A stretch of 64,000 bases of DNA from Niastella koreensis GR20-10 (GTDB lineage: Bacteria > Bacteroidota > Bacteroidia > Chitinophagales > Chitinophagaceae). This document shows, in pieces, positions 4,332-57,968 of this stretch. Location: assembly GCF_000246855.1 (NCBI RefSeq), contig NC_016609.1:744001-808000 (forward strand). Direction: 5' to 3'. The notes under the pieces were generated by a model. It was not told where the DNA came from, ran no database searches, and saw only the letters and a list, made by a program, of their open reading frames with translations. The first letter of the stretch is position 1. Every line of letters starts with the position of its first letter. The position numbers and the translations under genes were made by a program.

Positions 4332-4362
4332 AAAAAAGAGGCTACCAGGCGATAGCCTCTTT
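4332..4362 (-). terminator. Rho-independent terminator behind the methyltransferase gene
   Basis: Arms GAGGCTA (4338-4344) and TAGCCTC (4353-4359) are fully complementary with an 8-nt loop. On the minus strand the stem is followed by six T residues (4337-4332). It lies 67 bp behind the methyltransferase stop and 66 bp before the next minus-strand start. Confidence 0.75.
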
Positions 4363-4428
4363 GCTGTAAACCTTTTGCGTCAGCAGATCCACTGTTTAAG
4401 GTATGGGCGATGTTTTTTGGGGAGATAA

Positions 4429-4935
4429 TCATTTAGTTAACGCCGCATAGATCGAATCCTTTCTATACACCGATTGCCGTTCTCCTATTTTTTCAATTTT
4501 GGGAAAGCCGGCCGCACCAAAGATCGACTGTGCACGTGCAAACGAAACAGGGAATGGCACCCATTGATTGCCGTTGTCGGTATCATATTCAACCAGAATA
4601 AATACGCCTGCGCCATTGCGTAAATAGTTTTTTAATTGTTTGATACAGGCCACCTGGTCTTTTACATAATGGAGAGAATTTGCCATTAAGATCCCGTCAA
4701 GTGGAGGAAGGGGTAATTTATCCTTTGCAAAATCTGCCTGGTGAAAAATGATCGGGGGATGAAGTTGGTGATTAGGTTGCTTATCAACTGCATGTATAGT
4801 TGAACCCGGCGGTAAAATGGAGGCTAAAGCTTCTGAAAATAATCCCTGACCAGCGCCAAGGTCGGCCCAGGTTTGTGGTGTGCTATGCGGAACAATTCCT
4901 TTTTGGATCAACGATATCGCTTCGGTTAATTGCAT
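4429..4935 (-). CDS. SAM-dependent class I methyltransferase
   Basis: The 168-residue cytosolic protein has the Rossmann SAM-binding motif I (TWADLGAGQGLFS, about residues 22-34), the acidic end of strand 2 (IHAVDKQP), and motif IV-like ILMANSLHYV about residue 84. Length and order match a compact methyltransferase type 11/25 domain. The substrate is unknown; no substrate-binding domain is attached. The start at 4935 lies 11 bp after a remnant of an NTF2-like gene (4947-5168), so the gene may originally have been the second cistron of that unit. Confidence 0.8.
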   Translation of the reverse strand: MQLTEAISLIQKGIVPHSTPQTWADLGAGQGLFSEALASILPPGSTIHAVDKQPNHQLHPPIIFHQADFAKDKLPLPPLDGILMANSLHYVKDQVACIKQLKNYLRNGAGVFILVEYDTDNGNQWVPFPVSFARAQSIFGAAGFPKIEKIGERQSVYRKDSIYAALTK

Positions 4936-4946
4936 GGTATTGGGTT

Positions 4947-5168
4947 CTATGGTTCTGGACTAAAGACTGCCTTGCCGGTTTTCAAATCAACCGGTACCGA
5001 AACATGTTCAAGTACGATCAGCCAGTTGCCTCCAATTTTGCGATAACCGTCGGTAACCCGCACTGTCCGGTCAACAGAATGACCTTCCTTATCAGTACCC
5101 GTTACATGCTGTTTGGTTCCAAAGGTATCATTAAAACTTTGGAAAATTAATGAACGGCCCCTGACTGC
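4947..5168 (-). pseudogene. C-terminal remnant of an NTF2/SnoaL-like protein
   Basis: The minus strand is open for 73 codons from a TAA at 5171-5169 to the TAG at 4949-4947. The frame encodes a coherent protein end: HVTGTDKEGHSVDRTVRVTD, GYRKIGGNWLIVLEH, VSVPVDLKTGKAVF. This pattern (last strands of a cone-shaped beta sheet, then VPVDL) matches the C-terminal half of SnoaL/NTF2-like proteins of the SgcJ/YybH type. No start codon with a plausible N-terminus lies upstream, and the first ~60-70 residues of such a domain are missing, so the 5' half has been lost. Confidence 0.6.
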
Positions 5169-48802: not shown

Positions 48803-50023
48803 TTACTGGTTTACGCGGAACTTCTCCCATCCGTCAATGGTAGTGCGGTTGCACGTCATGGCCTGCGCGCCATTTTCACTGCTCACAAACAATCCATTAT
48901 TTCCCTGCAGGGAAATGGTACCGTCGGAGTTGGAGATCCAGTTAAACTGTTCCCAACCACTGGCAGTTGTTCTGTTGCAGGTAATAGGATTAACACCATT
49001 CTCGCTGCTTACATATTTGCCTGTGCTTTGCAACGAAACCTTGCCATTACCGGCATCTACTACCAGGAACTGTTCCCAGCCTTGCGCGGTTGTGCGGTTG
49101 CAGGTCATAGCCTGGGTGCCGTTCTCACTGCTCACATACAAATTATTGCTGCCTTTCAGGGTGATGGTTTGTCCAATAGGCGGAGCAGAAGAGGTACTCA
49201 TGCTGTAAACCCGAACATAGTCAACCAGCATCTGCGTTGGCAGGGCGCCGTTGTTGACGGTAGAACCGGGCAGATCGCCGCCAATAGCCAGGTTAAGTAT
49301 GATGAAGAAGGGGTTGTGGAATGCGCCGGTGTTATTGATATTGTTGGCAATATTACCGGTTACATACAGGGTATTGTCAACATACCACCTGATGCTGGAA
49401 GCATCCCACTCCACTGCATACACGTGAAAATCGCCGGGATTGGTTGTGGTGCTGCTTCCATATTGCACGTGACCGCTGCCACCATCCCAGTGCATGGTGC
49501 CCAGAATGCTGTTGGATGTGTTTACATGCTCCATAATATCAATTTCACCGCAGCCAGGCCAGCCGGCGCCGGTGTTGATATTGTTACCCAGCATCCAGAA
49601 AGCAGGCCAGGTACCTTGTACCATAGGCAGCTGCATACGGGCCTCTATACGTCCGTACGTAGTGGAAAACTTACCATAGGAGGTGAGCTTGGCAGAGGTA
49701 TAAGGTTGCCCGCCCATGCTCTGTTGTTTGGCCGTGATAACCAGGTTGCCGCCTGTTACGGTGGCATTCGCGCCCTGGTAATATTCCAACTCGTGGTTCA
49801 CGTTAGGGTTTCCATTGTCGAGGTTCCAGTTGTTTGTGTTCACACCGGTGCCATCGAACTCGTCGCTCCATACGAGCTGATAAGTTACTGCCCTGGGGGT
49901 AGTAACTTCCTTTTGGGCAGAAGCGTCACCGGAATGCAAATCCTTTTTACAGGAATTAATAAAGAATGATAATGTGATGCATGCGATGGCGCATGACAGG
50001 ATGCGAAAAGATTGTTTTCTCAT
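48803..50023 (-). CDS. GH16 endo-beta-1,3-glucanase lipoprotein with fascin-like module
   Basis: The 406-residue protein has a lipobox (LSFFINSC). Residues ~45-275 form a GH16 jelly roll (LVWSDEFDGTGVNTNNWN at the start; catalytic CGEIDIMEHV with the E-x-D-x-x-E motif; FHVYAVEWDASSIRWYVD). The last ~125 residues hold three YVSSENG/CNRTT repeats like those of the chitinase. It would cut laminarin-like beta-1,3-glucan at the cell surface. It follows the GH30 gene by 13 bp, so both are made together. Confidence 0.93.
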   Translation of the reverse strand: MRKQSFRILSCAIACITLSFFINSCKKDLHSGDASAQKEVTTPRAVTYQLVWSDEFDGTGVNTNNWNLDNGNPNVNHELEYYQGANATVTGGNLVITAKQQSMGGQPYTSAKLTSYGKFSTTYGRIEARMQLPMVQGTWPAFWMLGNNINTGAGWPGCGEIDIMEHVNTSNSILGTMHWDGGSGHVQYGSSTTTNPGDFHVYAVEWDASSIRWYVDNTLYVTGNIANNINNTGAFHNPFFIILNLAIGGDLPGSTVNNGALPTQMLVDYVRVYSMSTSSAPPIGQTITLKGSNNLYVSSENGTQAMTCNRTTAQGWEQFLVVDAGNGKVSLQSTGKYVSSENGVNPITCNRTTASGWEQFNWISNSDGTISLQGNNGLFVSSENGAQAMTCNRTTIDGWEKFRVNQ

Positions 50024-50036
50024 GTTGATGGTATTT

Positions 50037-51923
50037 TTATTGATTTACTCCAAATGCTTCCCAACCACTGATGGCTGTACGATTACAGGTCATAGCCTGG
50101 GCGCCGTTCTCGCTGCTGATATAGCGGCCATTATTACCCTGCAGGGCAATGGTGCCATCGGCATTCACGATCCAGGTAAACTGCTCCCAGGCGCCAACCG
50201 TGGCCCTGTTACAGGTAATAGGGTTTACGCCGTTTTCACTGGAAACGTATTTGCCCATGCTTTGCAGCGCTATCTTGCCGCCGCCGGCATCCACTACCAG
50301 GAACTGTTCCCAGGCCTGAGCAGTTGGCCGGTTGCAGTTCATAGCCTGCGTTCCATTTTCACCACTTACATACTGACCGTTAAAACCTTTCAACGTAATG
50401 GTTTGGCCAATAGGTGCACCGCTGCCGCCGCCACCGCCGGAAGATTGCGTGCCCGTCCATTTAAACGTAGCAACGGCGCCTGCCGCGAGGGTATACGTAA
50501 AGGATTCATTACCCCATTTAACTTTGAACGATACGCTTGACCCAGATGTATTGAGTGCAAGCAATACCTTGGAGCCATCAGGATTTTTGAAGGCTACGTT
50601 CTGGATGCTTCCCGGTGTGTTGGATGAAATGCGAACCGCGCCCTGTTTTACAAATTGTGAGGCATGCGCAATAATATAATAGGCGGTGTTGCGTGAATAA
50701 GAATTACCGGAGATGGTAACAGCGCCCATACAGTTTGAACAACCGCCACTGGTATGCGGAAAATAATTGGGGTCAGCAGCCAGGTTCCATTCAAGGGCTG
50801 CCTTGCTCCAGTTCCTGGTTGAACCGATCACCACATTGTTCACGTGCCAGGAGAGGTCGCCGCCAAAATTGCCGGGGCCTCCGATGTATTGCTCGGTAAA
50901 ATAAACGTTCTTGGCAGGGAACGCATTGTGCACGGTAGTAAGCGCATCGATCTGGCCGCTGTACAGGTGAAAAGCAGAACCATCGATATACTGGTTGGCC
51001 GCGGCATCGCCCAGTACGGTGGTGGGATACTCCGGGTGGTCGCAATTATGATCATAACAGATGATTCGCGTACTGATGCCATTGTTACTGAACTGGGGGC
51101 CCAGGTAATTCTTGATGAAATTAGCCTGTTCTCCGGCCGACATGGTCATCGATGGATTGTTGTACGGGTTCATTGGTTCGTTCTGTGGACACACCGCGTA
51201 AATGTTGATGCCCTGTGCCTGCATGGCCTGGATATATTTTACAAAGTAACGTGCATAGGCATCGTAATAGGCGCTGCTGGTGTTCAGACTGCCGCCGGTG
51301 AATCCGCCGTTACCTGTTGTGCTCACCTTCATCCATACCGGGGCCGTCCAGGGAGTGGCCAGGATTTTGATGGAAGGATTGATAGCCACGATCTTCTTCA
51401 GCACCGGCACCAGGTCGGTCATTTCGGCGTTAATGTTGAAGTTGTTGAGATTTAAGTCTGTTTGGCCGGAAGGCATATCATCATAGGTAAAATCGGCCGG
51501 GCTCAGGTCAGAAGCACCGATGCTTAACCGCAAAAAGCTTGAGCCTACCTGTGAGGGACTGAAGATCTCATTCAGAAAAGCAGTTTGGTTAGCGCCCAAT
51601 CCGTTAATGAGCGAAGCGCTTCCGCCAGTGAGGGTAAACCCAAAACCATCTATGGATTGGTAAGTCACCGTTTCATCAACTGTTACAGTAACCGGGTTGG
51701 TGCCCGCATCGGCCGCAAAATTAATGGCTGCCTGTTGTTGTAACAGTTTGGATTTATCGCCGGTGGTCATCCACACATTCACTGTTTCGTTGGCTGCCCT
51801 GGCCACAGTGGGTCCCTGAGTGGGGGAGGGCGAAACATCTCGTGTACAGGAAAAAGGGATCAGTGCCGCGCATAGCAGGGTAAGGGCCTGCAACGGCCAT
51901 GATCGTTTGCTTTGAGGGAACAT
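50037..51923 (-). CDS. GH30 glycosidase lipoprotein with fascin-like module
   Basis: The 628-residue protein has a lipobox (ALIPFSC). The GH30 barrel starts with [16 protein letters not shown] and contains [13 protein letters not shown], the acid/base motif CPQNEPMNP and the nucleophile motif [10 protein letters not shown]; the C-terminal beta-sandwich of the family follows ([17 protein letters not shown]). A Gly/Ser linker leads to three YVSGENG/YVSSENG repeats (residues ~500-628). Family members act as beta-1,6-glucanase or glucosylceramidase; next to a GH16 enzyme, beta-1,6-glucan of fungal walls is the likely target. First gene of the GH30-GH16 unit. Confidence 0.92.
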
Positions 51924-52405: not shown

Positions 52406-52408
52406 ATG
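52342..52408. promoter_or_regulatory. 13-bp inverted repeat around the RHS start codon with two nested palindromes
   Basis: CATGGTTAAGGTT (52342-52354) is the exact reverse complement of AACCTTAACCATG (52396-52408), and the right arm contains the ATG start codon of the RHS gene. The 41-bp loop contains two perfect 12-bp palindromes, AGTAAATTTACT (52355-52366) and TTTACGCGTAAA (52373-52384). In RNA the outer stem would hide the start codon; in DNA the palindromes look like regulator sites. Confidence 0.6.
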
Positions 52409-54634
52409 AGAAAACTATTACTGCTTGTTCCCTTTTTACTTCTTTGCCTTTATTCTTTTGCTCAAACCAACATCCGGCAGGATAACCGGGTAAGCCCGGT
52501 TTTAAAGCGGGCGGTAAGCCCCCAAAGCGGTTATAATACGTATGGCAGAACCGGCCGGTTTATTAACATGGCTGTACTCAATACATCCTCCCACACAATA
52601 AGCTGGTTCACCTGTTATGGCAGATTGTTTGATTCTACCCGGCTCGATGATCAGGAATTTAAAGAGGTCACCGCCAAACAGATTGATCCGTTTACATTAT
52701 ATCAGAACATTTGCGACAAATACCTGGCAGATATAGCCGCCGCCAAAGATATCTACCGGGTTTACGGCGGTAATCAGCTTTTAGTCAAGCTGCCTGGCAA
52801 TTACCAGGCATTGTTTGCCATGGAGAGCGTACAGGCTGCCAAAACTCCTTTGCAAAAGTTGATGGCGATAGAAAATGTCCGGAAGAAAATTCTCATGCAG
52901 CTTGCCTGGCTGAACTGCGCCAATCCGGCCTCATTACATGATGACCCGCTTTATAGGGCCAATAAAGAGCAGGCAGGCTCTATGGTGCAAACAAAAGACA
53001 GCACGGTATATTATAATATCGACCCCACCAGTGCAGTTGCCAAAATAAGTCTTTATATAACATCGCCCGAAAAGCTATACGTACAGAACAGGCTGGGTGA
53101 AGTAATTGACAGCGTTGCCCTGTTACCGGCAAAGAGTGCTCTTTTGCAGAAAGAGAAAACAGATGTTTTCCTGTTGTATCGGGGTTGGCTTGAGATGCAG
53201 TGGCAGGAAGCCATGTACGCTATAAAGATAAATAACGGAGAATACAGGCAGGTCAATGGTAAGGAAGAGGGCTACAGGCTGCTCAATGCCATCAGGGCAA
53301 AGATCAATTTATTGATCTCGCCCGAAGCAAAGTGTATTGAGCAGGCGGTATATGAGGCCTATAGAAGTGAAGCTTCTGAAATATATTATATCCCCCTGTT
53401 GGGCATCAGCTACAACCTGGTTCAAACCAGGGGCCTGAAAGAATATGAGTTGAGCAATCATCTGGGGAACGTGCTGGTCACGGTTAATGACAAGAAAATT
53501 GGTGTACCTGCCACCACTAATAGTTCTTTGATCGATCACTATGAACCGGATATCGTAAGTGCGCAGGATTATTATCCGTTTGGCATGTTGCAGCCGGGGC
53601 GTTCTCTTGCTTCTTCAGGAGATAAATATAGATACGGGTTTAATGGCAAGGAAAATGACAATGAAGTGAAGGGTGAGGGCAATCAGCAGGATTATGGGAT
53701 GCGGGTGTATGATCCGAGGTTGGGGAAGTTCTTGAGTGTGGATCCATTAACCAATTCTTACCCATTTTATACGCCATATCAGTTTTCAGGAAATATGCCA
53801 ATTACAGCCGTTGATCTGGATGGCTCGGAGGCAAAAGTGACATTTAATTTGGGTACGATTGGAAAGGATCGGACCTGGATGAATTTAAGTACCTCTGTTA
53901 ATATTAAAATTCAGATAATTAATTTGTCTGCGACATCTGATGATAATTTGAGTATGGAAACAATAAGGCAAAATCTTAGTGCTGACTTATCTGATAAACT
54001 TGGTGGACCAGCTACTGTAAATGGTATAAATATACCGTTTGTATTTAAGGCCACAGATAACAAAATAACATCAGTGACCCTGGCAAAGAAAGGTGAAATG
54101 AGGAGCTACAATATTACATATAATACCACCGTTACTGCTGATGTTTCAATTGTACATGATATTTCACAGATTGCCAGAGATGGATTCGTTTTTGCAATAG
54201 TAGATGATATAAAAGACGAACCTGGAATGGATACCAGAGGGCTGGCTGATCAAAAGGGTGGAAAGGTTGCAATGGGCGAGGCTAGTGAATATGATGTCAG
54301 TAAGGTTGGTAAAGAAGGAAGACAACTGACTTACCATGAAGTTTTACATTTGCTCGGTGCTGTAGATACTTATAAAAAAGATGTACCCCATTTTGAAGGA
54401 ACTGATAATAATAACAATGTGATGTATTTTGTAAGTCCGGATAATAAGATGCAATTAATACCAAGGCAAAAAGTTTCTGAAATATGGCAACAAATAATAG
54501 GGTATCCACAAGATCTTTTGAGGCCTGGGCCCTATGTACAACCCTCCACAACTGATAATAGCACTTCAACTGCTGAACAACTAAAAAAATTCATTAAAGA
54601 AAATGGAAGCGCTGCAAAAGTTAGTACGCAATAG
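52406..54634 (+). CDS. RHS-core protein with C-terminal metzincin-like metalloprotease domain
   Basis: The 742-residue protein has a signal peptide, ~340 residues of unclear helical/beta sequence, and then a short RHS-associated core (YELSNHLGNVLVTVND, DYYPFGMLQPGR, YRYGFNGKENDNE, YGMRVYDPRLGKFLSVDPL, residues ~345-460). The usual long series of YD repeats is missing. The variable C-terminal region (~residues 475-742) contains HEVLHLLGAVD starting at His 644, which fits HExxHxxGxxD, and NNVMYF about 18 residues later could be the Met-turn, as in metzincins. Polymorphic toxins are built this way. The gene overlaps the next one by 32 bp; base composition drops to AT-rich within the C-terminal region, as is typical of exchanged toxin tips. 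Confidence 0.8.
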   Translation: MRKLLLLVPFLLLCLYSFAQTNIRQDNRVSPVLKRAVSPQSGYNTYGRTGRFINMAVLNTSSHTISWFTCYGRLFDSTRLDDQEFKEVTAKQIDPFTLYQNICDKYLADIAAAKDIYRVYGGNQLLVKLPGNYQALFAMESVQAAKTPLQKLMAIENVRKKILMQLAWLNCANPASLHDDPLYRANKEQAGSMVQTKDSTVYYNIDPTSAVAKISLYITSPEKLYVQNRLGEVIDSVALLPAKSALLQKEKTDVFLLYRGWLEMQWQEAMYAIKINNGEYRQVNGKEEGYRLLNAIRAKINLLISPEAKCIEQAVYEAYRSEASEIYYIPLLGISYNLVQTRGLKEYELSNHLGNVLVTVNDKKIGVPATTNSSLIDHYEPDIVSAQDYYPFGMLQPGRSLASSGDKYRYGFNGKENDNEVKGEGNQQDYGMRVYDPRLGKFLSVDPLTNSYPFYTPYQFSGNMPITAVDLDGSEAKVTFNLGTIGKDRTWMNLSTSVNIKIQIINLSATSDDNLSMETIRQNLSADLSDKLGGPATVNGINIPFVFKATDNKITSVTLAKKGEMRSYNITYNTTVTADVSIVHDISQIARDGFVFAIVDDIKDEPGMDTRGLADQKGGKVAMGEASEYDVSKVGKEGRQLTYHEVLHLLGAVDTYKKDVPHFEGTDNNNNVMYFVSPDNKMQLIPRQKVSEIWQQIIGYPQDLLRPGPYVQPSTTDNSTSTAEQLKKFIKENGSAAKVSTQ

Positions 54635-54967: not shown

Positions 54968-55567
54968 TTAGCAATTTTTTATTTTGTGTTGAACTGCAGT
55001 ATCATTTGGATAGTGTTCTAAATATATGTTATAATATTTTAGGGCACTATCTTTTTTGTACATCAGGTTAAATACAGTCCCTACCTGAAGGGAATAGTCA
55101 TAATTAATAGCGGCGGCTTTTTTATAATCAGATAGAGCGGAATCAAGCTTATTCATAACTACATATATTCCTGCTCTTTTGCTTAGTGCAAGCGGGAAAG
55201 GCTCGTTACTAATGAGGGTGCTATATTCCTTAATTGCTTCCTGATATTTTTTTTGTTTTTCGTAAATCATTCCGCTATAAAGGTGTAATGAATTAGCTTT
55301 TCCAAAAGCAGGGAGTGAATCCATAAGGTAATAAGCGGTATTGAAATCGCCGTTATGTATGCTTTTTTCTATCCGGAGGTTCAAATCGTTTTCATAGGCG
55401 ATGGCTCGTTTTAGAGAGTCCAATCCTGCTATATTTTCTTCCCTGACTTTATTAATGAATGTTGCTGCATCAGGTTTGCGATAAACATACCTGAAGATGA
55501 AAAAGCCACTTGCACCCGCAATCAGTGTAAGGAGCAATAAGGAAAACTGTTTGTTTCTTTTGTTCAT
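54968..55567 (-). CDS. Membrane-anchored TPR protein
   Basis: Starting at ATG 55567 gives 199 residues. An N-terminal transmembrane anchor (SLLLLTLIAGASGFFIFRYV) is followed by TPR-like helix pairs (LHLYSGMIYEKQKKYQEAIK, ALSKRAGIYVVMNKLDSALS, FNLMYKKDSALKYYNIYLEH). An upstream extension to 55636 would run into the Y-RNA-like gene at 55615-55763 and is rejected. The gene is AT-rich like the convergent cytochrome gene 11 bp away. TPR domains mediate protein contacts; the partner is unknown. Confidence 0.75.
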   Translation of the reverse strand: MNKRNKQFSLLLLTLIAGASGFFIFRYVYRKPDAATFINKVREENIAGLDSLKRAIAYENDLNLRIEKSIHNGDFNTAYYLMDSLPAFGKANSLHLYSGMIYEKQKKYQEAIKEYSTLISNEPFPLALSKRAGIYVVMNKLDSALSDYKKAAAINYDYSLQVGTVFNLMYKKDSALKYYNIYLEHYPNDTAVQHKIKNC

Positions 55568-55614
55568 GCTATCTGTTTTGCTACGAATGTCAAAATGACT
55601 TTGGGCAAGATAGC

Positions 55615-55763
55615 TAAAAAATAAACAAGGCAACAATCCGAAAAGAGCGTCTTACTATGGTGCGCTACCGGTTGCGCTATTCCGCTCAGCGGAAGCTGGG
55701 ATTTGAACCCGCACCCCCATATCCCTAAACGAAGTAACTCTTTGCTACGGCACTTGTTTATAA
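55615..55763 (-). ncRNA. Y-RNA-like gene A with tRNA-like module (YrlA type)
   Basis: Read on the minus strand, the ends pair (AUAAACAAG at 55761-55753 with CUUGUUUAU at 55629-55621) and are followed by TTTTT. Next to the 5' arm is the conserved box GUGCCGUA (55753-55746) and then GUUACUUCG (55738-55730). Inside lies a tRNA-like part: GGG-UUCAAAU-CCC like a T arm (~55712-55697), a closed hairpin UUCCGC/GCGGAA (55694-55680) and GCGC-AACCGGUA-GCGC like a D arm (55677-55662). The order is that of a tRNA opened at its anticodon and closed at its acceptor, as in bacterial YrlA RNAs bound by Ro60. Confidence 0.75.
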
Positions 55764-55772
55764 GTTGAAGAA

Positions 55773-55858
55773 GGTAAACACAAGCAAGGCGACAACTGAA
55801 AAAAGCCTGGTTTGATTTTAAGTCGAAGTAACTTTTTTCCACGGCACTTGCTGTGTTA
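55773..55858 (-). ncRNA. Y-RNA-like gene B, short form without tRNA-like module
   Basis: On the minus strand GCAAG (55851-55847) and CUUGC (55788-55784) close the RNA, with ACACA/UGUGU adding to the stem across a bulge. The conserved boxes GUGCCGUG (55847-55840) and GUUACUUCG (55832-55824) are present and a perfect inner stem GAAAAAAG/CUUUUUUC follows. Only ~20 nt remain for the loop, with no T or D arm, so this unit would be a minimal Ro-binding RNA. The T-rich stretch TTTACCTTCTT follows the 3' arm. Confidence 0.65.
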
Positions 55859-55863
55859 CTGCT

Positions 55864-56018
55864 ATAAAAGAATTGTAAGGTAAAAAGCGAATAAAGTACA
55901 TAGTTGCTCTACCAACTGAGCTACCATATTGCGGTTGCAATATGAGCAGGAATCGAACCCGCGACCCACTGATTGGAAATCGAAGTAACCCTATTCTACG
56001 ACACTTACAATTATTTTA
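55864..56018 (-). ncRNA. Y-RNA-like gene C with complete tRNA-like module (YrlA type)
   Basis: Minus strand: AAUUGUAAG (56012-56004) pairs with CUUACAAUU (55879-55871), then UCUUUUAU. The conserved boxes are GUGUCGUA (56005-55998) and GUUACUUCG (55989-55981). The inner module is the clearest of the four: T arm GCGGG-UUCGAUU-CCUGC (55963-55947), a perfect 8-bp hairpin CAUAUUGC-AACC-GCAAUAUG (55944-55925), and D arm GCUC-AGUUGGUA-GAGC (55921-55906). In a genuine tRNA the D arm comes first; here it comes last, so the order is circularly permuted. Confidence 0.8.
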
Positions 56019-56034
56019 GTTCATTGATAAATTT

Positions 56035-56157
56035 AAAAAACAGGGCAAAAAGCAAAACAAGTTTGTGGGCATTGCTTGCCGGAGTCGAACCGGATAGTTG
56101 TTACACTATTCCTCCCAATTTGGAGCGAAGTAACCCGTTTTTTACGGCACCTGTCTT
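56035..56157 (-). ncRNA. Y-RNA-like gene D, reduced tRNA-like module
   Basis: The first RNA after the Ro60 stop (22 bp). Minus strand: ACAGG (56154-56150) pairs with CCUGU (56044-56040), followed by six T. The boxes GUGCCGUA (56150-56143) and GUUACUUCG (56134-56126) are kept. Two hairpins (CUCC..GGAG; AUAGU..ACUAU) precede a T arm CCGG-UUCGACU-CCGG (56093-56079), and a small hairpin GGCA/UGCC follows, but no D-arm-like sequence is seen. Confidence 0.7.
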
Positions 56158-56178
56158 TATTTGCTATAGGGCAAATGG

Positions 56179-57708
56179 TTATAATGCTATTTTTTTAATC
56201 ACATCGATGGCATTGGAACCATCTTCCAGGGCGTCCATCACTTCAAATACCTTGTCGCTCCAACCCGCTATCAAATGAACACCATTCTGTTCTACCTTTA
56301 ATGGCACATGTTTATGCCCCGCCAGATCAAATATATACAGCTTCGCATTGGGCGCAATTTTTTTATACGCCTGCCATTGATAGCTGATGGTGTTTTCTGC
56401 ACGCTGGTTTTTAGTGTTGCTATCCCACATTTGGGTATCGGTGAACAACATGATCTTGTCGGCTTTATATCTTTTCGATACAAGGTCTTTTATAACAAGA
56501 TACCCGTTGGTTGAATAACCCACTTCACCTTCCCGGTTATAGAATGCATCCACATTGGCCAGGATGCCTGTTGATGGCATTGGCACAATTTTCCAACTGT
56601 CGCCAAACATACCGGCCTGCACATTTTCGCATCTTGCCTGTAACAGCATACCCAGCAACAAACCGATGTCGTACATCAATACTTTGCTTTTTGGCGATAC
56701 AGGTTGCTGCATAGAACCGGATACATCACAGGCTATAACTACTTTGGTATCCAGGTCAAAGCCTTTCATGTTTTGAATGCTTGCTACCAGGGCATTTTCC
56801 AAAGCCGTCATTATATAAGAAGTATAACCCGAGTTTACAGTTTTCAATTCCTTGTACGACGACAGAAAACGGAATGGCAATTGTTTTGAATTGGCCACCG
56901 CAGTTTTGTTGGTCAGGTAATCGGCTACCATTCTGATATGGTCAATGCTTACTTCAGCTTCCAGGATATTTCTCAGGTTTCTAAGCAGGGCCATATAACC
57001 CAGCTTTTTGCTGCTGATCAGGTCTTCCCATTTGGCTTTGATGGCATTTTTCTTTGCATATGCTGATGTAAACTTTTGTTGTCCGAGTGCCGACAACTCC
57101 GTTTCCCAGGTATAAGGCACCGCCAGTTCGTTGTTTACAATTTTATTGAAAAGCAACTGCTGCGCTTCATCCTTTGCTTTAGGGTGAACAAGAAACAAGG
57201 CATCACGCAATTTTACAGCGGTATCCCGGTTATATTTTGCAAACTGGTATTCGTCAAAATTGTTGAAGGAAGCCGCCAAACCCTTTTGCAGTTGTTTGGA
57301 AATTTTGTTCAGTTTTTTAACGCCTTTTCTTTCGTTGGCTATTTGATAATAAGACAACAGTTCCGTTATCTCATCAGGTCTCTTAACCACGTTTTCAACG
57401 GTTTTTTTCACCAGGTCATCACCCTTATGAATTTTAGCCAGTTCGGTAGCCAGCACCACAGGAGCGGTACGCAGATTCATTTGCTGTCTGGCATATACAG
57501 CCAGTTTTGCAACGAATGCCGAATTTACCTTAGTCACCAAACTTTTTATTCTTGCCAGCCGGTCGTCCGCTTTTTCATAAAAGGTATCGTTCAGCATAGA
57601 AGTGGCAATGGCTGAGTAGAGTTCCATTTCAGGAGATAAAGTATAAGCTTTAGCACCTGCATGGTTTACTGCTGCTGTTTTTTCTTTAGTTCTGAAATTG
57701 AATCTCAT
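56179..57708 (-). CDS. rsr: Ro60 orthologue (TROVE domain plus vWA domain)
   Basis: From ATG 57708 the protein has 509 residues; the GTG at 57747 would add an unrelated leader. Residues ~15-320 are the TROVE HEAT-like ring (LSPEMELYSAIATSMLNDTF, ARIKSLVTKVNSAFVAKLAV, MNLRTAPVVLATELAKIHKG, LGYMALLRNLRNILEAEVS). Residues ~322-509 are a vWA domain with the MIDAS motif DVSGSM (Asp 328) and FTDTQMWD. Bacterial Ro60 (Rsr) binds Y RNAs and works with exonucleases such as PNPase in rRNA maturation and in RNA turnover under stress. Four Y-RNA-like genes follow directly downstream on the same strand. Confidence 0.95.
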   Translation of the reverse strand: MRFNFRTKEKTAAVNHAGAKAYTLSPEMELYSAIATSMLNDTFYEKADDRLARIKSLVTKVNSAFVAKLAVYARQQMNLRTAPVVLATELAKIHKGDDLVKKTVENVVKRPDEITELLSYYQIANERKGVKKLNKISKQLQKGLAASFNNFDEYQFAKYNRDTAVKLRDALFLVHPKAKDEAQQLLFNKIVNNELAVPYTWETELSALGQQKFTSAYAKKNAIKAKWEDLISSKKLGYMALLRNLRNILEAEVSIDHIRMVADYLTNKTAVANSKQLPFRFLSSYKELKTVNSGYTSYIMTALENALVASIQNMKGFDLDTKVVIACDVSGSMQQPVSPKSKVLMYDIGLLLGMLLQARCENVQAGMFGDSWKIVPMPSTGILANVDAFYNREGEVGYSTNGYLVIKDLVSKRYKADKIMLFTDTQMWDSNTKNQRAENTISYQWQAYKKIAPNAKLYIFDLAGHKHVPLKVEQNGVHLIAGWSDKVFEVMDALEDGSNAIDVIKKIAL

Positions 57709-57923
57709 AAAAATTTGTTTTATCGTGTTGGTATTGCAAATATGCACGCACCCTTACGCAGCCAACCTGCGCAGTGAAATATATTTGTAAAATATTTTTA
57801 GAGCGCTTGATTCTCAGCGTTGTAAGTGATAAACTATTTTCTGTGGAAAAAGGAGCCCGATCAGCTGCGCAGCTCCATTGCGTATTCCGGCCTTCGTTTT
57901 TACAAATAGTTGCCAAAGTCAAC

Positions 57924-57931
57924 TATATTTG
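57924..57931 (+). promoter_or_regulatory. -7 promoter box (TATATTTG) of the GNAT gene
   Basis: A perfect TAnnTTTG match 37 bp before ATG 57969. A TTTT stretch at 57897-57900 is the only -33 candidate, at a long spacing of 23 bp. Confidence 0.45.
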
Positions 57932-57968
57932 TTTTCTTTGTTGTAAGAAATAATAAAGGGGGAACATC

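What the first reader, a model, noticed from the sequence alone, without database searches (positions are those of the whole stretch)
55615..57708. Ro60 gene followed by four tandem Y-RNA-like genes
Directly behind a TROVE-vWA (Ro60/Rsr) gene on the same strand, four consecutive RNA units share the boxes GUGYCGUR and GUUACUUCG near the 5' side, have complementary ends and stop in T-rich sequence. Three contain tRNA-like pieces, as known for bacterial YrlA RNAs. I know of loci with one or two Y RNAs; four in a row with different inner modules would be an unusually large set and suggests Ro60 particles of different specificity in one cell.
Basis: partly seen in the sequence, partly recalled or inferred. 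Interest (0 to 1): 0.9.

Follow-up and report, generated by a model that had tools for sequence, protein, structure and literature searches.

The report
Ro60 gene with four Y RNAs
A bacterium of the phylum Bacteroidota carries a gene for the RNA-binding protein Ro60 followed by four different small RNA genes that share one presumed Ro60-binding frame; such strings turn out to be common behind Ro60 genes in its phylum and suggest that one protein is fitted with several RNA adaptors.

Summary
Window 55621-56157 (minus strand), directly behind an intact TROVE-vWA (Ro60/Rsr) gene, holds four RNA units with one shared frame. Covariance models built only from other species' loci hit these places and nothing else in 64 kb (best E per unit 3e-19 to 5e-31), and the frame covaries strongly across Bacteroidota. 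Units 2 and 4 carry a circularly permuted tRNA-like domain (YrlA type). Unit 1 carries a module resembling the Deinococcus Y RNA. Unit 3 is the bare frame. Rfam's own models score below their gathering thresholds. That four is unusually many fails for this phylum: 63 named Ro60 loci hold about 300 units, median 5, up to 10; all 221 model hits lie on the Ro60 strand. This is a known kind of RNA in a rich tandem form. That the modules give Ro60 different partners or substrates is inference; array-mates are not more diverse than chance. Side leads: three related units carry a module with a 23S rRNA helix 69-71 stretch (clear in two), and one viral-collection contig carries Ro60 plus five units. 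Expression and Ro60 binding are untested.

The parts
56179..57708 (-). Ro60/Rsr orthologue (TROVE domain plus vWA domain, 509 aa, DVSGS metal-site motif)
   Evidence: Pfam TROVE E 2.5e-28, 99.9 bits; vWA_Ro60 E 4.2e-5, 24.0 bits, below its cut-off of 27.7; intact frame; relatives at 47-77% identity in 13 further genomes of 147 searched in the family and at 53-87% in 63 named loci; solved TROVE protein 9l5y E 1.2e-31. The metal-site (MIDAS) name is recalled
56036..56157 (-). Y RNA unit 1, 122 nt: common frame plus Deinococcus-type module (GGGAGGAAUAGUG..CUAUCCGGUUCGACUCCGGC..AUGCCC, a T-arm-like hairpin)
   Evidence: R3 model 93.8 bits E 4.7e-24; R1 47.6 bits E 4.6e-12; Rfam Deinococcus_Y_RNA only 22.4 bits, E 0.25
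55871..56012 (-). Y RNA unit 2, 142 nt: common frame plus circularly permuted tRNA-like domain (T arm, closed acceptor stem, D arm)
   Evidence: R2 120.1 bits E 4.8e-31; Rfam YrlA 34.8 bits E 1.2e-5; its free fold is this structure, z -3.10; ARAGORN accepts the un-permuted module
55781..55854 (-). Y RNA unit 3, about 74 nt: the frame alone (minimal Y RNA)
   Evidence: R1 71.1 bits E 3e-19; by energy alone its fold is not better than shuffles (z -0.79; z -1.91 for a 91-nt version)
55621..55761 (-). Y RNA unit 4, 141 nt: common frame plus permuted tRNA-like domain with a 5-bp anticodon-stem equivalent (CCAUA/UAUGG)
   Evidence: R2 89.5 bits E 1.4e-22; Rfam YrlA 29.4 bits E 4.3e-4; against: the free minimum-energy fold differs (-43.7 against -36.7 kcal/mol with the tRNA-like helices enforced) and ARAGORN does not accept its un-permuted form

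Best explanation
This is a Ro60-Y RNA locus: one Ro60/Rsr protein and four Y RNAs made from the region directly behind it, probably from one transcript that is cut into units. SHOWN by sequence: every unit has the same frame, which is a closing helix with a bulged U, two further pairs, an internal loop, a second helix, and GUUACUUCG on the 5' side; onto the frame is set a variable module. INFERRED from known bacterial Y RNAs: Ro60 holds the basal frame, and the module acts as adaptor or gate. Permuted tRNA modules (units 2, 4) and the Deinococcus-type module (unit 1) would tether PNPase or present a tRNA-like surface, while the bare frame (unit 3) would only block or gate the Ro60 ring. The array thus gives one Ro60 several interchangeable RNA partners for structured-RNA decay or tRNA quality control under stress.
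For: Models from other loci find exactly the four units. Covariation, counted on RNAalifold structures of the same alignments: permuted-tRNA class 97.6% of cells paired, 25 of 32 pairs with both-sided change, score 0.614 against 0.193 in shuffles and at most 0.129 in slid controls; minimal class 14 of 15 pairs; Deinococcus-type 24 of 34. In 220 of 258 non-duplicate box units whose 3' strand could be placed by the outer stem alone, the inner Y:R pair is Watson-Crick in 183, against a permutation mean of 101 and maximum of 125; helix 2 is complementary in 143 against a mean of 22 and maximum of 34. All 221 R1 hits in 63 loci lie on the Ro60 strand. Box and TROVE co-occur: 14 of 28 TROVE genomes (own included) have the box against 10 of 367 others, Fisher p 2.7e-12. 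Un-permuted modules are called tRNA by ARAGORN in 44 of 96 and 12 of 64 units of two classes, none of their three shuffles each. RtcB, RlaP and WYL-regulator genes recur near Ro60 (19, 8 and 25 of 64 loci by BLAST cluster, named from one or two representatives). A review gives Ro60 binding by the basal stem, PNPase binding by the tRNA-like domain and DusA/TruB modification for known bacterial Y RNAs (PMC8394870 passages).
Against: No expression or binding data. Promoter patterns no commoner than in shuffles and no terminator. Rfam YrlA and Deinococcus models score below threshold. Single-sequence folding is clearly significant only for unit 2, and unit 4 prefers another fold. Class diversity within arrays is not above chance. 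None of 20 Deinococcus-type modules passes the rotated tRNA test. Half of the TROVE genomes in the phylum sample (14 of 28) lack the exact box and were not examined with the models. In this genome RtcB and RlaP lie elsewhere. The box search demanded the bulged U, so its constancy is no evidence.
Confidence: 0.8

Rival explanations
1. The units are not separate trans-acting RNAs but 3'-untranslated elements of the Ro60 messenger: Ro60 binds the frames in its own message and so controls message stability or its own level (autoregulation).
For: Unit 1 starts 21 nt behind the stop codon, spacers are about 16-23 nt, promoter patterns are no commoner than in shuffles.
Against: Modules are structured domains, including permuted tRNA folds, that covary; in some Prevotellaceae-type loci units lie 5' of Ro60; in several Chryseobacterium loci the first unit lies 1.4-2.5 kb away with genes between (for example L036, L031). 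One weak promoter match does lie between units 1 and 2.
Confidence: 0.15
2. The tRNA-like modules are decoys: they soak up tRNA-cleaving nucleases (phage or toxin anticodon nucleases) or tRNA-modifying enzymes, and Ro60 only stabilises them.
For: Permuted tRNA modules; recurrent neighbours RtcB and RlaP of RNA repair; a contig of the viral collection carries Ro60 with five units; a 2020 paper offers YrlA as a possible competitive inhibitor of an anticodon nuclease (PMC7790460 passages).
Against: The bare-frame units have no tRNA part; the anticodon loop, which anticodon nucleases are understood to need (recalled), is replaced by the Y-RNA stem.
Confidence: 0.2
3. Remnants of tRNA genes or of a mobile element that lodged behind Ro60; no function.
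For: tRNA-like sequence; ARAGORN calls a tRNA-Gly at 55937-56005; Ro60 is patchy in the family, 14 of 147 genomes with the own one.
Against: Compensatory changes in most helices; permuted order T arm, acceptor, D arm kept across genera; same-strand position of all 221 hits.
Confidence: 0.02

Closest known systems
YrlA bacterial Y RNA (Rfam RF02553; Salmonella YrlA, PDB 6CU1)
   Same: Next to a Ro60/Rsr gene; basal stem plus circularly permuted tRNA-like domain (T arm, closed acceptor stem, D arm); PMC11472068 (passages) describes 6CU1 as circularly permuted against tRNA
   Different: Basal frame is diverged (GUGYCGUR / GUUACUUCG), scores 34.8 and 29.4 bits against a threshold of 69; several tandem units with other modules beside it
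Deinococcus radiodurans Y RNA (Rfam RF01053)
   Same: Unit 1 module has a similar order of a GGGNGGAA strand, a hairpin and a T-arm-like hairpin, with GGUUACUUC in the 5' strand (alignment)
   Different: 22.4 bits against a threshold of 80; E 0.25; a covarying Bacteroidota form of its own
Ro60-containing RNA-repair operon (rsr-yrlBA-rtcBA of Salmonella)
   Same: Ro60, Y RNAs and RtcB near each other in 19 of 64 loci; two Y RNAs (yrlB, yrlA) in that operon (PMC7790460 passages)
   Different: In the window organism RtcB and RlaP are elsewhere in the genome; neighbours here are a GNAT acetyltransferase, a MarR-type regulator and a TPR protein
Vertebrate Y RNAs
   Same: Basal helix with a bulged pyrimidine as Ro60 site (PMC4726728 passages); several different Y RNAs per cell
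   Different: Bulged U instead of C, different loops, tRNA-like modules; PMC4726728 calls bacterial Y RNAs not homologous with the vertebrate clades

Membership tests
Bacterial Y RNA (broad sense: Ro60/Rsr-associated small RNA with basal stem and loop module) | Encoded beside a Ro60/Rsr gene | tested here: met
   Adjacent TROVE-vWA gene; all 221 model hits on the Ro60 strand in 63 loci
Bacterial Y RNA (broad sense: Ro60/Rsr-associated small RNA with basal stem and loop module) | 5' and 3' ends pair into a basal stem with a bulge and internal loop | tested here: met
   Covariation of both helices; all four units fit. The bulged U itself was demanded by the box search and so not tested
Bacterial Y RNA (broad sense: Ro60/Rsr-associated small RNA with basal stem and loop module) | Binds Ro60 in the cell | not testable with these tools
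   Needs pull-down
Rfam YrlA (RF02553) | Score at or above the curated gathering threshold of 69 bits | tested here: not met
   34.8 bits (unit 2), 29.4 bits (unit 4)
Rfam YrlA (RF02553) | Circularly permuted tRNA-like domain | tested here: met
   Units 2 and 4; un-permuted unit 2 accepted by ARAGORN, unit 4 not
Rfam YrlA (RF02553) | Substrate of DusA and TruB | not testable with these tools
   Feature as stated in PMC8394870
Rfam Deinococcus_Y_RNA (RF01053) | Score at or above the curated gathering threshold of 80 bits | tested here: not met
   Unit 1: 22.4 bits, E 0.25; a 791-base stretch of L025 with one unit of the same type gave no Deinococcus match at E <= 0.1
RYPER (Ro60-Y RNA-PNPase complex) | Y RNA tethers Rsr to PNPase | not testable with these tools
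   Needs co-purification
tRNA genes | Canonical cloverleaf order with anticodon loop | tested here: not met
   Order is T arm, acceptor, D arm; Rfam tRNA does not hit the window at gathering; the ARAGORN tRNA-Gly call spans frame plus T arm and is a mis-call

The most novel reading that the evidence does not exclude
Bacteroidota Ro60 works with a cassette array: a fixed Ro60-docking frame repeated in tandem, each copy carrying an exchangeable mimic of a substrate or partner surface (tRNA in permuted order, a Deinococcus-type module, in some species a piece of 23S rRNA helices 69-71, or nothing), so that one ring protein becomes a family of RNA-addressed decay or repair particles, and the array is mobile enough to ride on viral contigs.
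Probability: 0.3. Interest if true: 0.85.

Novelty: new variant of a known kind. Interest (0 to 1): 0.6.

Why it matters
What the variable part of Y RNAs does is still open. A phylum in which 60 of 63 retrieved Ro60 loci have Y RNA units, 57 of them two or more, on one docking frame with different modules, is a natural experiment: frames and modules can be swapped and compared in one cell. The RNAs are missed by curated models: no Y RNA family reaches its gathering score in the window or in the 13 related loci searched, and ARAGORN and the Rfam tRNA model (L025) mis-call one each as tRNA, so genome annotation of this phylum probably lacks a common RNA class. Bacteroides Ro60 RNPs also matter as suspected triggers of Ro60 autoimmunity (PMC11277228 passages).

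Tried and rejected
tRNA or tmRNA gene: rejected; permuted order, and Rfam gathering gives no hit. Chance boxes: rejected (3 hits in one mononucleotide shuffle against 270; the pattern read backwards hits 8 of 395 genomes against 24 for the pattern). Repertoire hypothesis by class diversity: tested on 54 arrays, no support; the classes came from simple regular expressions. Within the window, modules 2 and 4 share 56% identity against 47% for shuffles, the other five pairs are at or below shuffle level or one point above, so these are not recent duplicates. Single-sequence folding energy as proof: weak except unit 2. 23S-like units as a widespread class: the pattern TACTTCG-N2-14-CTAAGGTAGC is in none of 395 class genomes; Rfam finds no LSU match in the L059 unit at E <= 1; only the stretch over helices 69-71 is similar to 23S (33 of 33 nt in L059, 23 of 25 in L022; 17 of 19 in L049, not above shuffles). 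Sigma-70-type promoters and terminators: not above shuffles; TANNTTTG, recalled as the Bacteroidota -7 element, occurs on this strand of 55550-57950 only inside the Ro60 gene. Ten box-positive genomes without a TROVE match (11 loci): R1 finds a clear unit in one (L102, genome G272; the TROVE-positive G177 is of the same genus) and weak matches in three (L099 E 0.0034, L101 0.017, L098 0.04); the rest look like chance. One search also left out box units without a good outer stem (220 of 258 kept). One search left out 8 units without stem and two coding-region hits.
Full report
What is there. The minus strand of 56179-57708 is an intact 509-aa TROVE-vWA protein (Pfam TROVE E 2.5e-28; vWA_Ro60 E 4.2e-5 at 24.0 bits, below its curated cut-off of 27.7), the only TROVE gene found in a 9.03-Mb genome. 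Its nearest named relatives are Niastella vici and N. soli (87 and 86% identity). The genome length, 9,033,684 bases, is the one I recall for Niastella koreensis GR20-10; no tool confirmed that. Twenty-one nucleotides behind the stop codon begin four RNA units, 56036-56157, 55871-56012, 55781-55854 and 55621-55761, about 16-23 nt apart.

Is it more than chance. Rfam at gathering thresholds finds nothing in the window. A sensitive 1-kb search finds YrlA at units 2 and 4 (34.8 and 29.4 bits, E 1.2e-5 and 4.3e-4) and a weak Deinococcus Y RNA match at unit 1 (22.4 bits, E 0.25), all below threshold. I therefore built three covariance models from loci of other species, none with the two Niastella loci: R1 from 22 minimal units, R2 from 25 permuted-tRNA units, R3 from 18 Deinococcus-type units. 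Over the whole 64-kb window at E <= 1 they give 4, 4 and 3 hits, all in the array: unit 1 93.8 bits (R3, E 4.7e-24), unit 2 120.1 bits (R2, E 4.8e-31), unit 3 71.1 bits (R1, E 3e-19), unit 4 89.5 bits (R2, E 1.4e-22). E-values of these models are rough.

Structure. The frame is a closing helix, a bulged U, two more pairs, an internal loop, and a second helix made by the spacer between the two boxes. In 220 of 258 non-duplicate box units I could place the 3' strand by the outer helix alone; the inner Y:R pair is then Watson-Crick in 183, against a permutation mean of 101 and maximum of 125 in 2000, and helix 2 is complementary in 143, against a mean of 22 and maximum of 34 in 300 (permutations do not keep relatedness). 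On alignments, with structures predicted from the same alignments, the permuted-tRNA class has 97.6% of cells paired, 25 of 32 pairs with changes on both sides and a covariation score of 0.614, against 0.193 in shuffles and at most 0.129 when slid. The minimal class has 14 of 15 pairs with changes on both sides (3 of 500 shuffles reach that count, none the score), the Deinococcus-type class 24 of 34. The box search demanded the bulged U, so its constancy proves nothing.

Modules. Units 2 and 4 have the order T arm, closed acceptor stem, D arm, that is, a tRNA opened at the anticodon and closed at the acceptor end. After rotating modules back with a neutral anticodon loop, ARAGORN accepts 44 of 96 and 12 of 64 units of two classes, none of 20 Deinococcus-type, 5 minimal and one 23S-type units, and no shuffle (three per unit); unit 2 is accepted, unit 4 is not (same counts). 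Unit 2 folds freely into this structure (z -3.10). Unit 4's free minimum is another fold, 7 kcal/mol lower than the tRNA-like one, a point against it that I let covariation and the model score outweigh. Unit 1 carries a T-arm-like hairpin in a module resembling that of the Deinococcus Y RNA. Unit 3 has no module.

How common. The loose box gives 270 hits in 72 of 77 sources (L004-L079 plus the window, three of them duplicates) against 3 in a mononucleotide shuffle. In 63 named Ro60 loci, themselves retrieved by likeness to this Ro60, R1 gives 221 hits, all on the Ro60 strand. The union of box and R1 is about 300 units, median 5 per locus, maximum 10 in Chryseobacterium binzhouense; three loci have none (L033, L046, L074), and in these the contig ends within Ro60 or 0.2-1.7 kb behind it. 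Of 219 box units, R1 found 140, so each method misses some. In 395 genomes of the phylum, 28 have TROVE and 24 the exact box, 14 both (own genome included), each time within 3 kb of each other; box without TROVE in 10 of 367, about the rate of the reversed-pattern control (8 of 395) (Fisher p 2.7e-12). R1 re-finds units in all 13 further genomes with both (49 hits), and clearly in one of ten box-only genomes (G272). The 14 TROVE genomes without the exact box were not examined with the models. Four units is therefore ordinary for this phylum. From recall, described bacterial loci have one or two; the Salmonella operon has two (PMC7790460 passages). No paper in the held library that I found describes arrays (search listings), but the primary papers are not held, so the literature claim is weak.

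Surroundings. Across 64 loci the recurrent neighbours include a divergent WYL-domain regulator (25), RtcB (19) and RlaP (8), BLAST clusters named from one or two representatives each, reminiscent of the Salmonella RNA-repair operon (PMC7790460 passages). A glyoxalase-family protein (19 loci), a sulfate permease (12 loci) and several others also recur, by the loci listed mainly in Chryseobacterium. In the window's genome three RtcB-like genes and two adjacent RlaP matches lie elsewhere, and the neighbours are a GNAT acetyltransferase, a MarR-type regulator and a TPR protein. Ro60 is patchy (14 of 147 family genomes with the own one), and one contig of the viral collection carries Ro60 with five units, so the locus probably moves.

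Mechanism. Reviews state that known bacterial Y RNAs hold Rsr by the basal stem, that the tRNA-like domain binds PNPase, and that DusA and TruB modify it (PMC8394870 passages; PMC4726728 passages). The same division of labour fits here: frame for Ro60, module for the partner, bare frame as gate only. This is inference. Rivals are an autoregulatory 3' UTR (close spacing, no promoter pattern above shuffles) and tRNA decoys. The idea that arrays are assembled to be diverse got no support: 2.72 classes per array against 2.64 by chance.

Side finding. Three relatives (L059:7067-7308, L022:8004-8232, L049:3897-4112) have units of 216-242 nt that align with 77% mean column identity, frame included, and hold 33 of 33, 23 of 25 and 17 of 19 nt of the 23S stretch over helices 69-71 (helix names recalled; the last not above shuffles). 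The searched pattern occurs in none of 395 class genomes. The rest of the module resembles nothing I could name. Since Deinococcus Rsr acts in 23S maturation (title of a 2007 paper seen in a reference list), an rRNA-mimic Y RNA would be of interest.

Verdict. The thing is a Bacteroidota-type tandem Y RNA array, a new variant of a known kind; the number four is not exceptional; functional specialisation is untested.

Noticed in passing
L059:7067-7308, L022:8004-8232, L049:3897-4112: Y RNA units of 216-242 nt with a module containing a 23S rRNA helix 69-71 stretch (33 of 33 nt in L059, 23 of 25 in L022, doubtful in L049); conserved among three loci and otherwise unidentified.
   Followed up: partly
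L113:5517-5968: A contig in the viral collection carries Ro60 followed by five Y RNA units.
   Followed up: partly
window 55937-56005 (-): ARAGORN calls a tRNA-Gly(tcc) here; it lies inside Y RNA unit 2 and is a mis-call that annotation pipelines may copy. Rfam's tRNA model makes a like call at L025:6726-6797.
   Followed up: yes
L019:3698-4717, L024:7740-9269, L025:7360-8118: Divergent WYL-domain regulator, RtcB ligase and RlaP nucleotidyltransferase recur near Bacteroidota Ro60-Y RNA arrays.
   Followed up: partly
L064, L068, L075, L079, L065, L072 (about 4340-4970); L061 and L063 on both sides: In Prevotellaceae/Bacteroidales-type loci Y RNA units sit 5' of Ro60, in two loci on both sides.
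   Followed up: no
L026:8163-8999 and L028:7338-7868: Proteins without Pfam match (279 aa) and of DUF6584 recur inside or beside the Chryseobacterium arrays.
   Followed up: no
window 52406-54634 (+): 742-aa protein with an RHS-core-like stretch (recalled motif); Pfam gives no match at E 0.001.
   Followed up: no
window 48803-51923 (-): Two neighbouring secreted glycosidase-like proteins (by recall) share a repeated C-terminal domain ([19 protein letters not shown]); seen in the translations.
   Followed up: no
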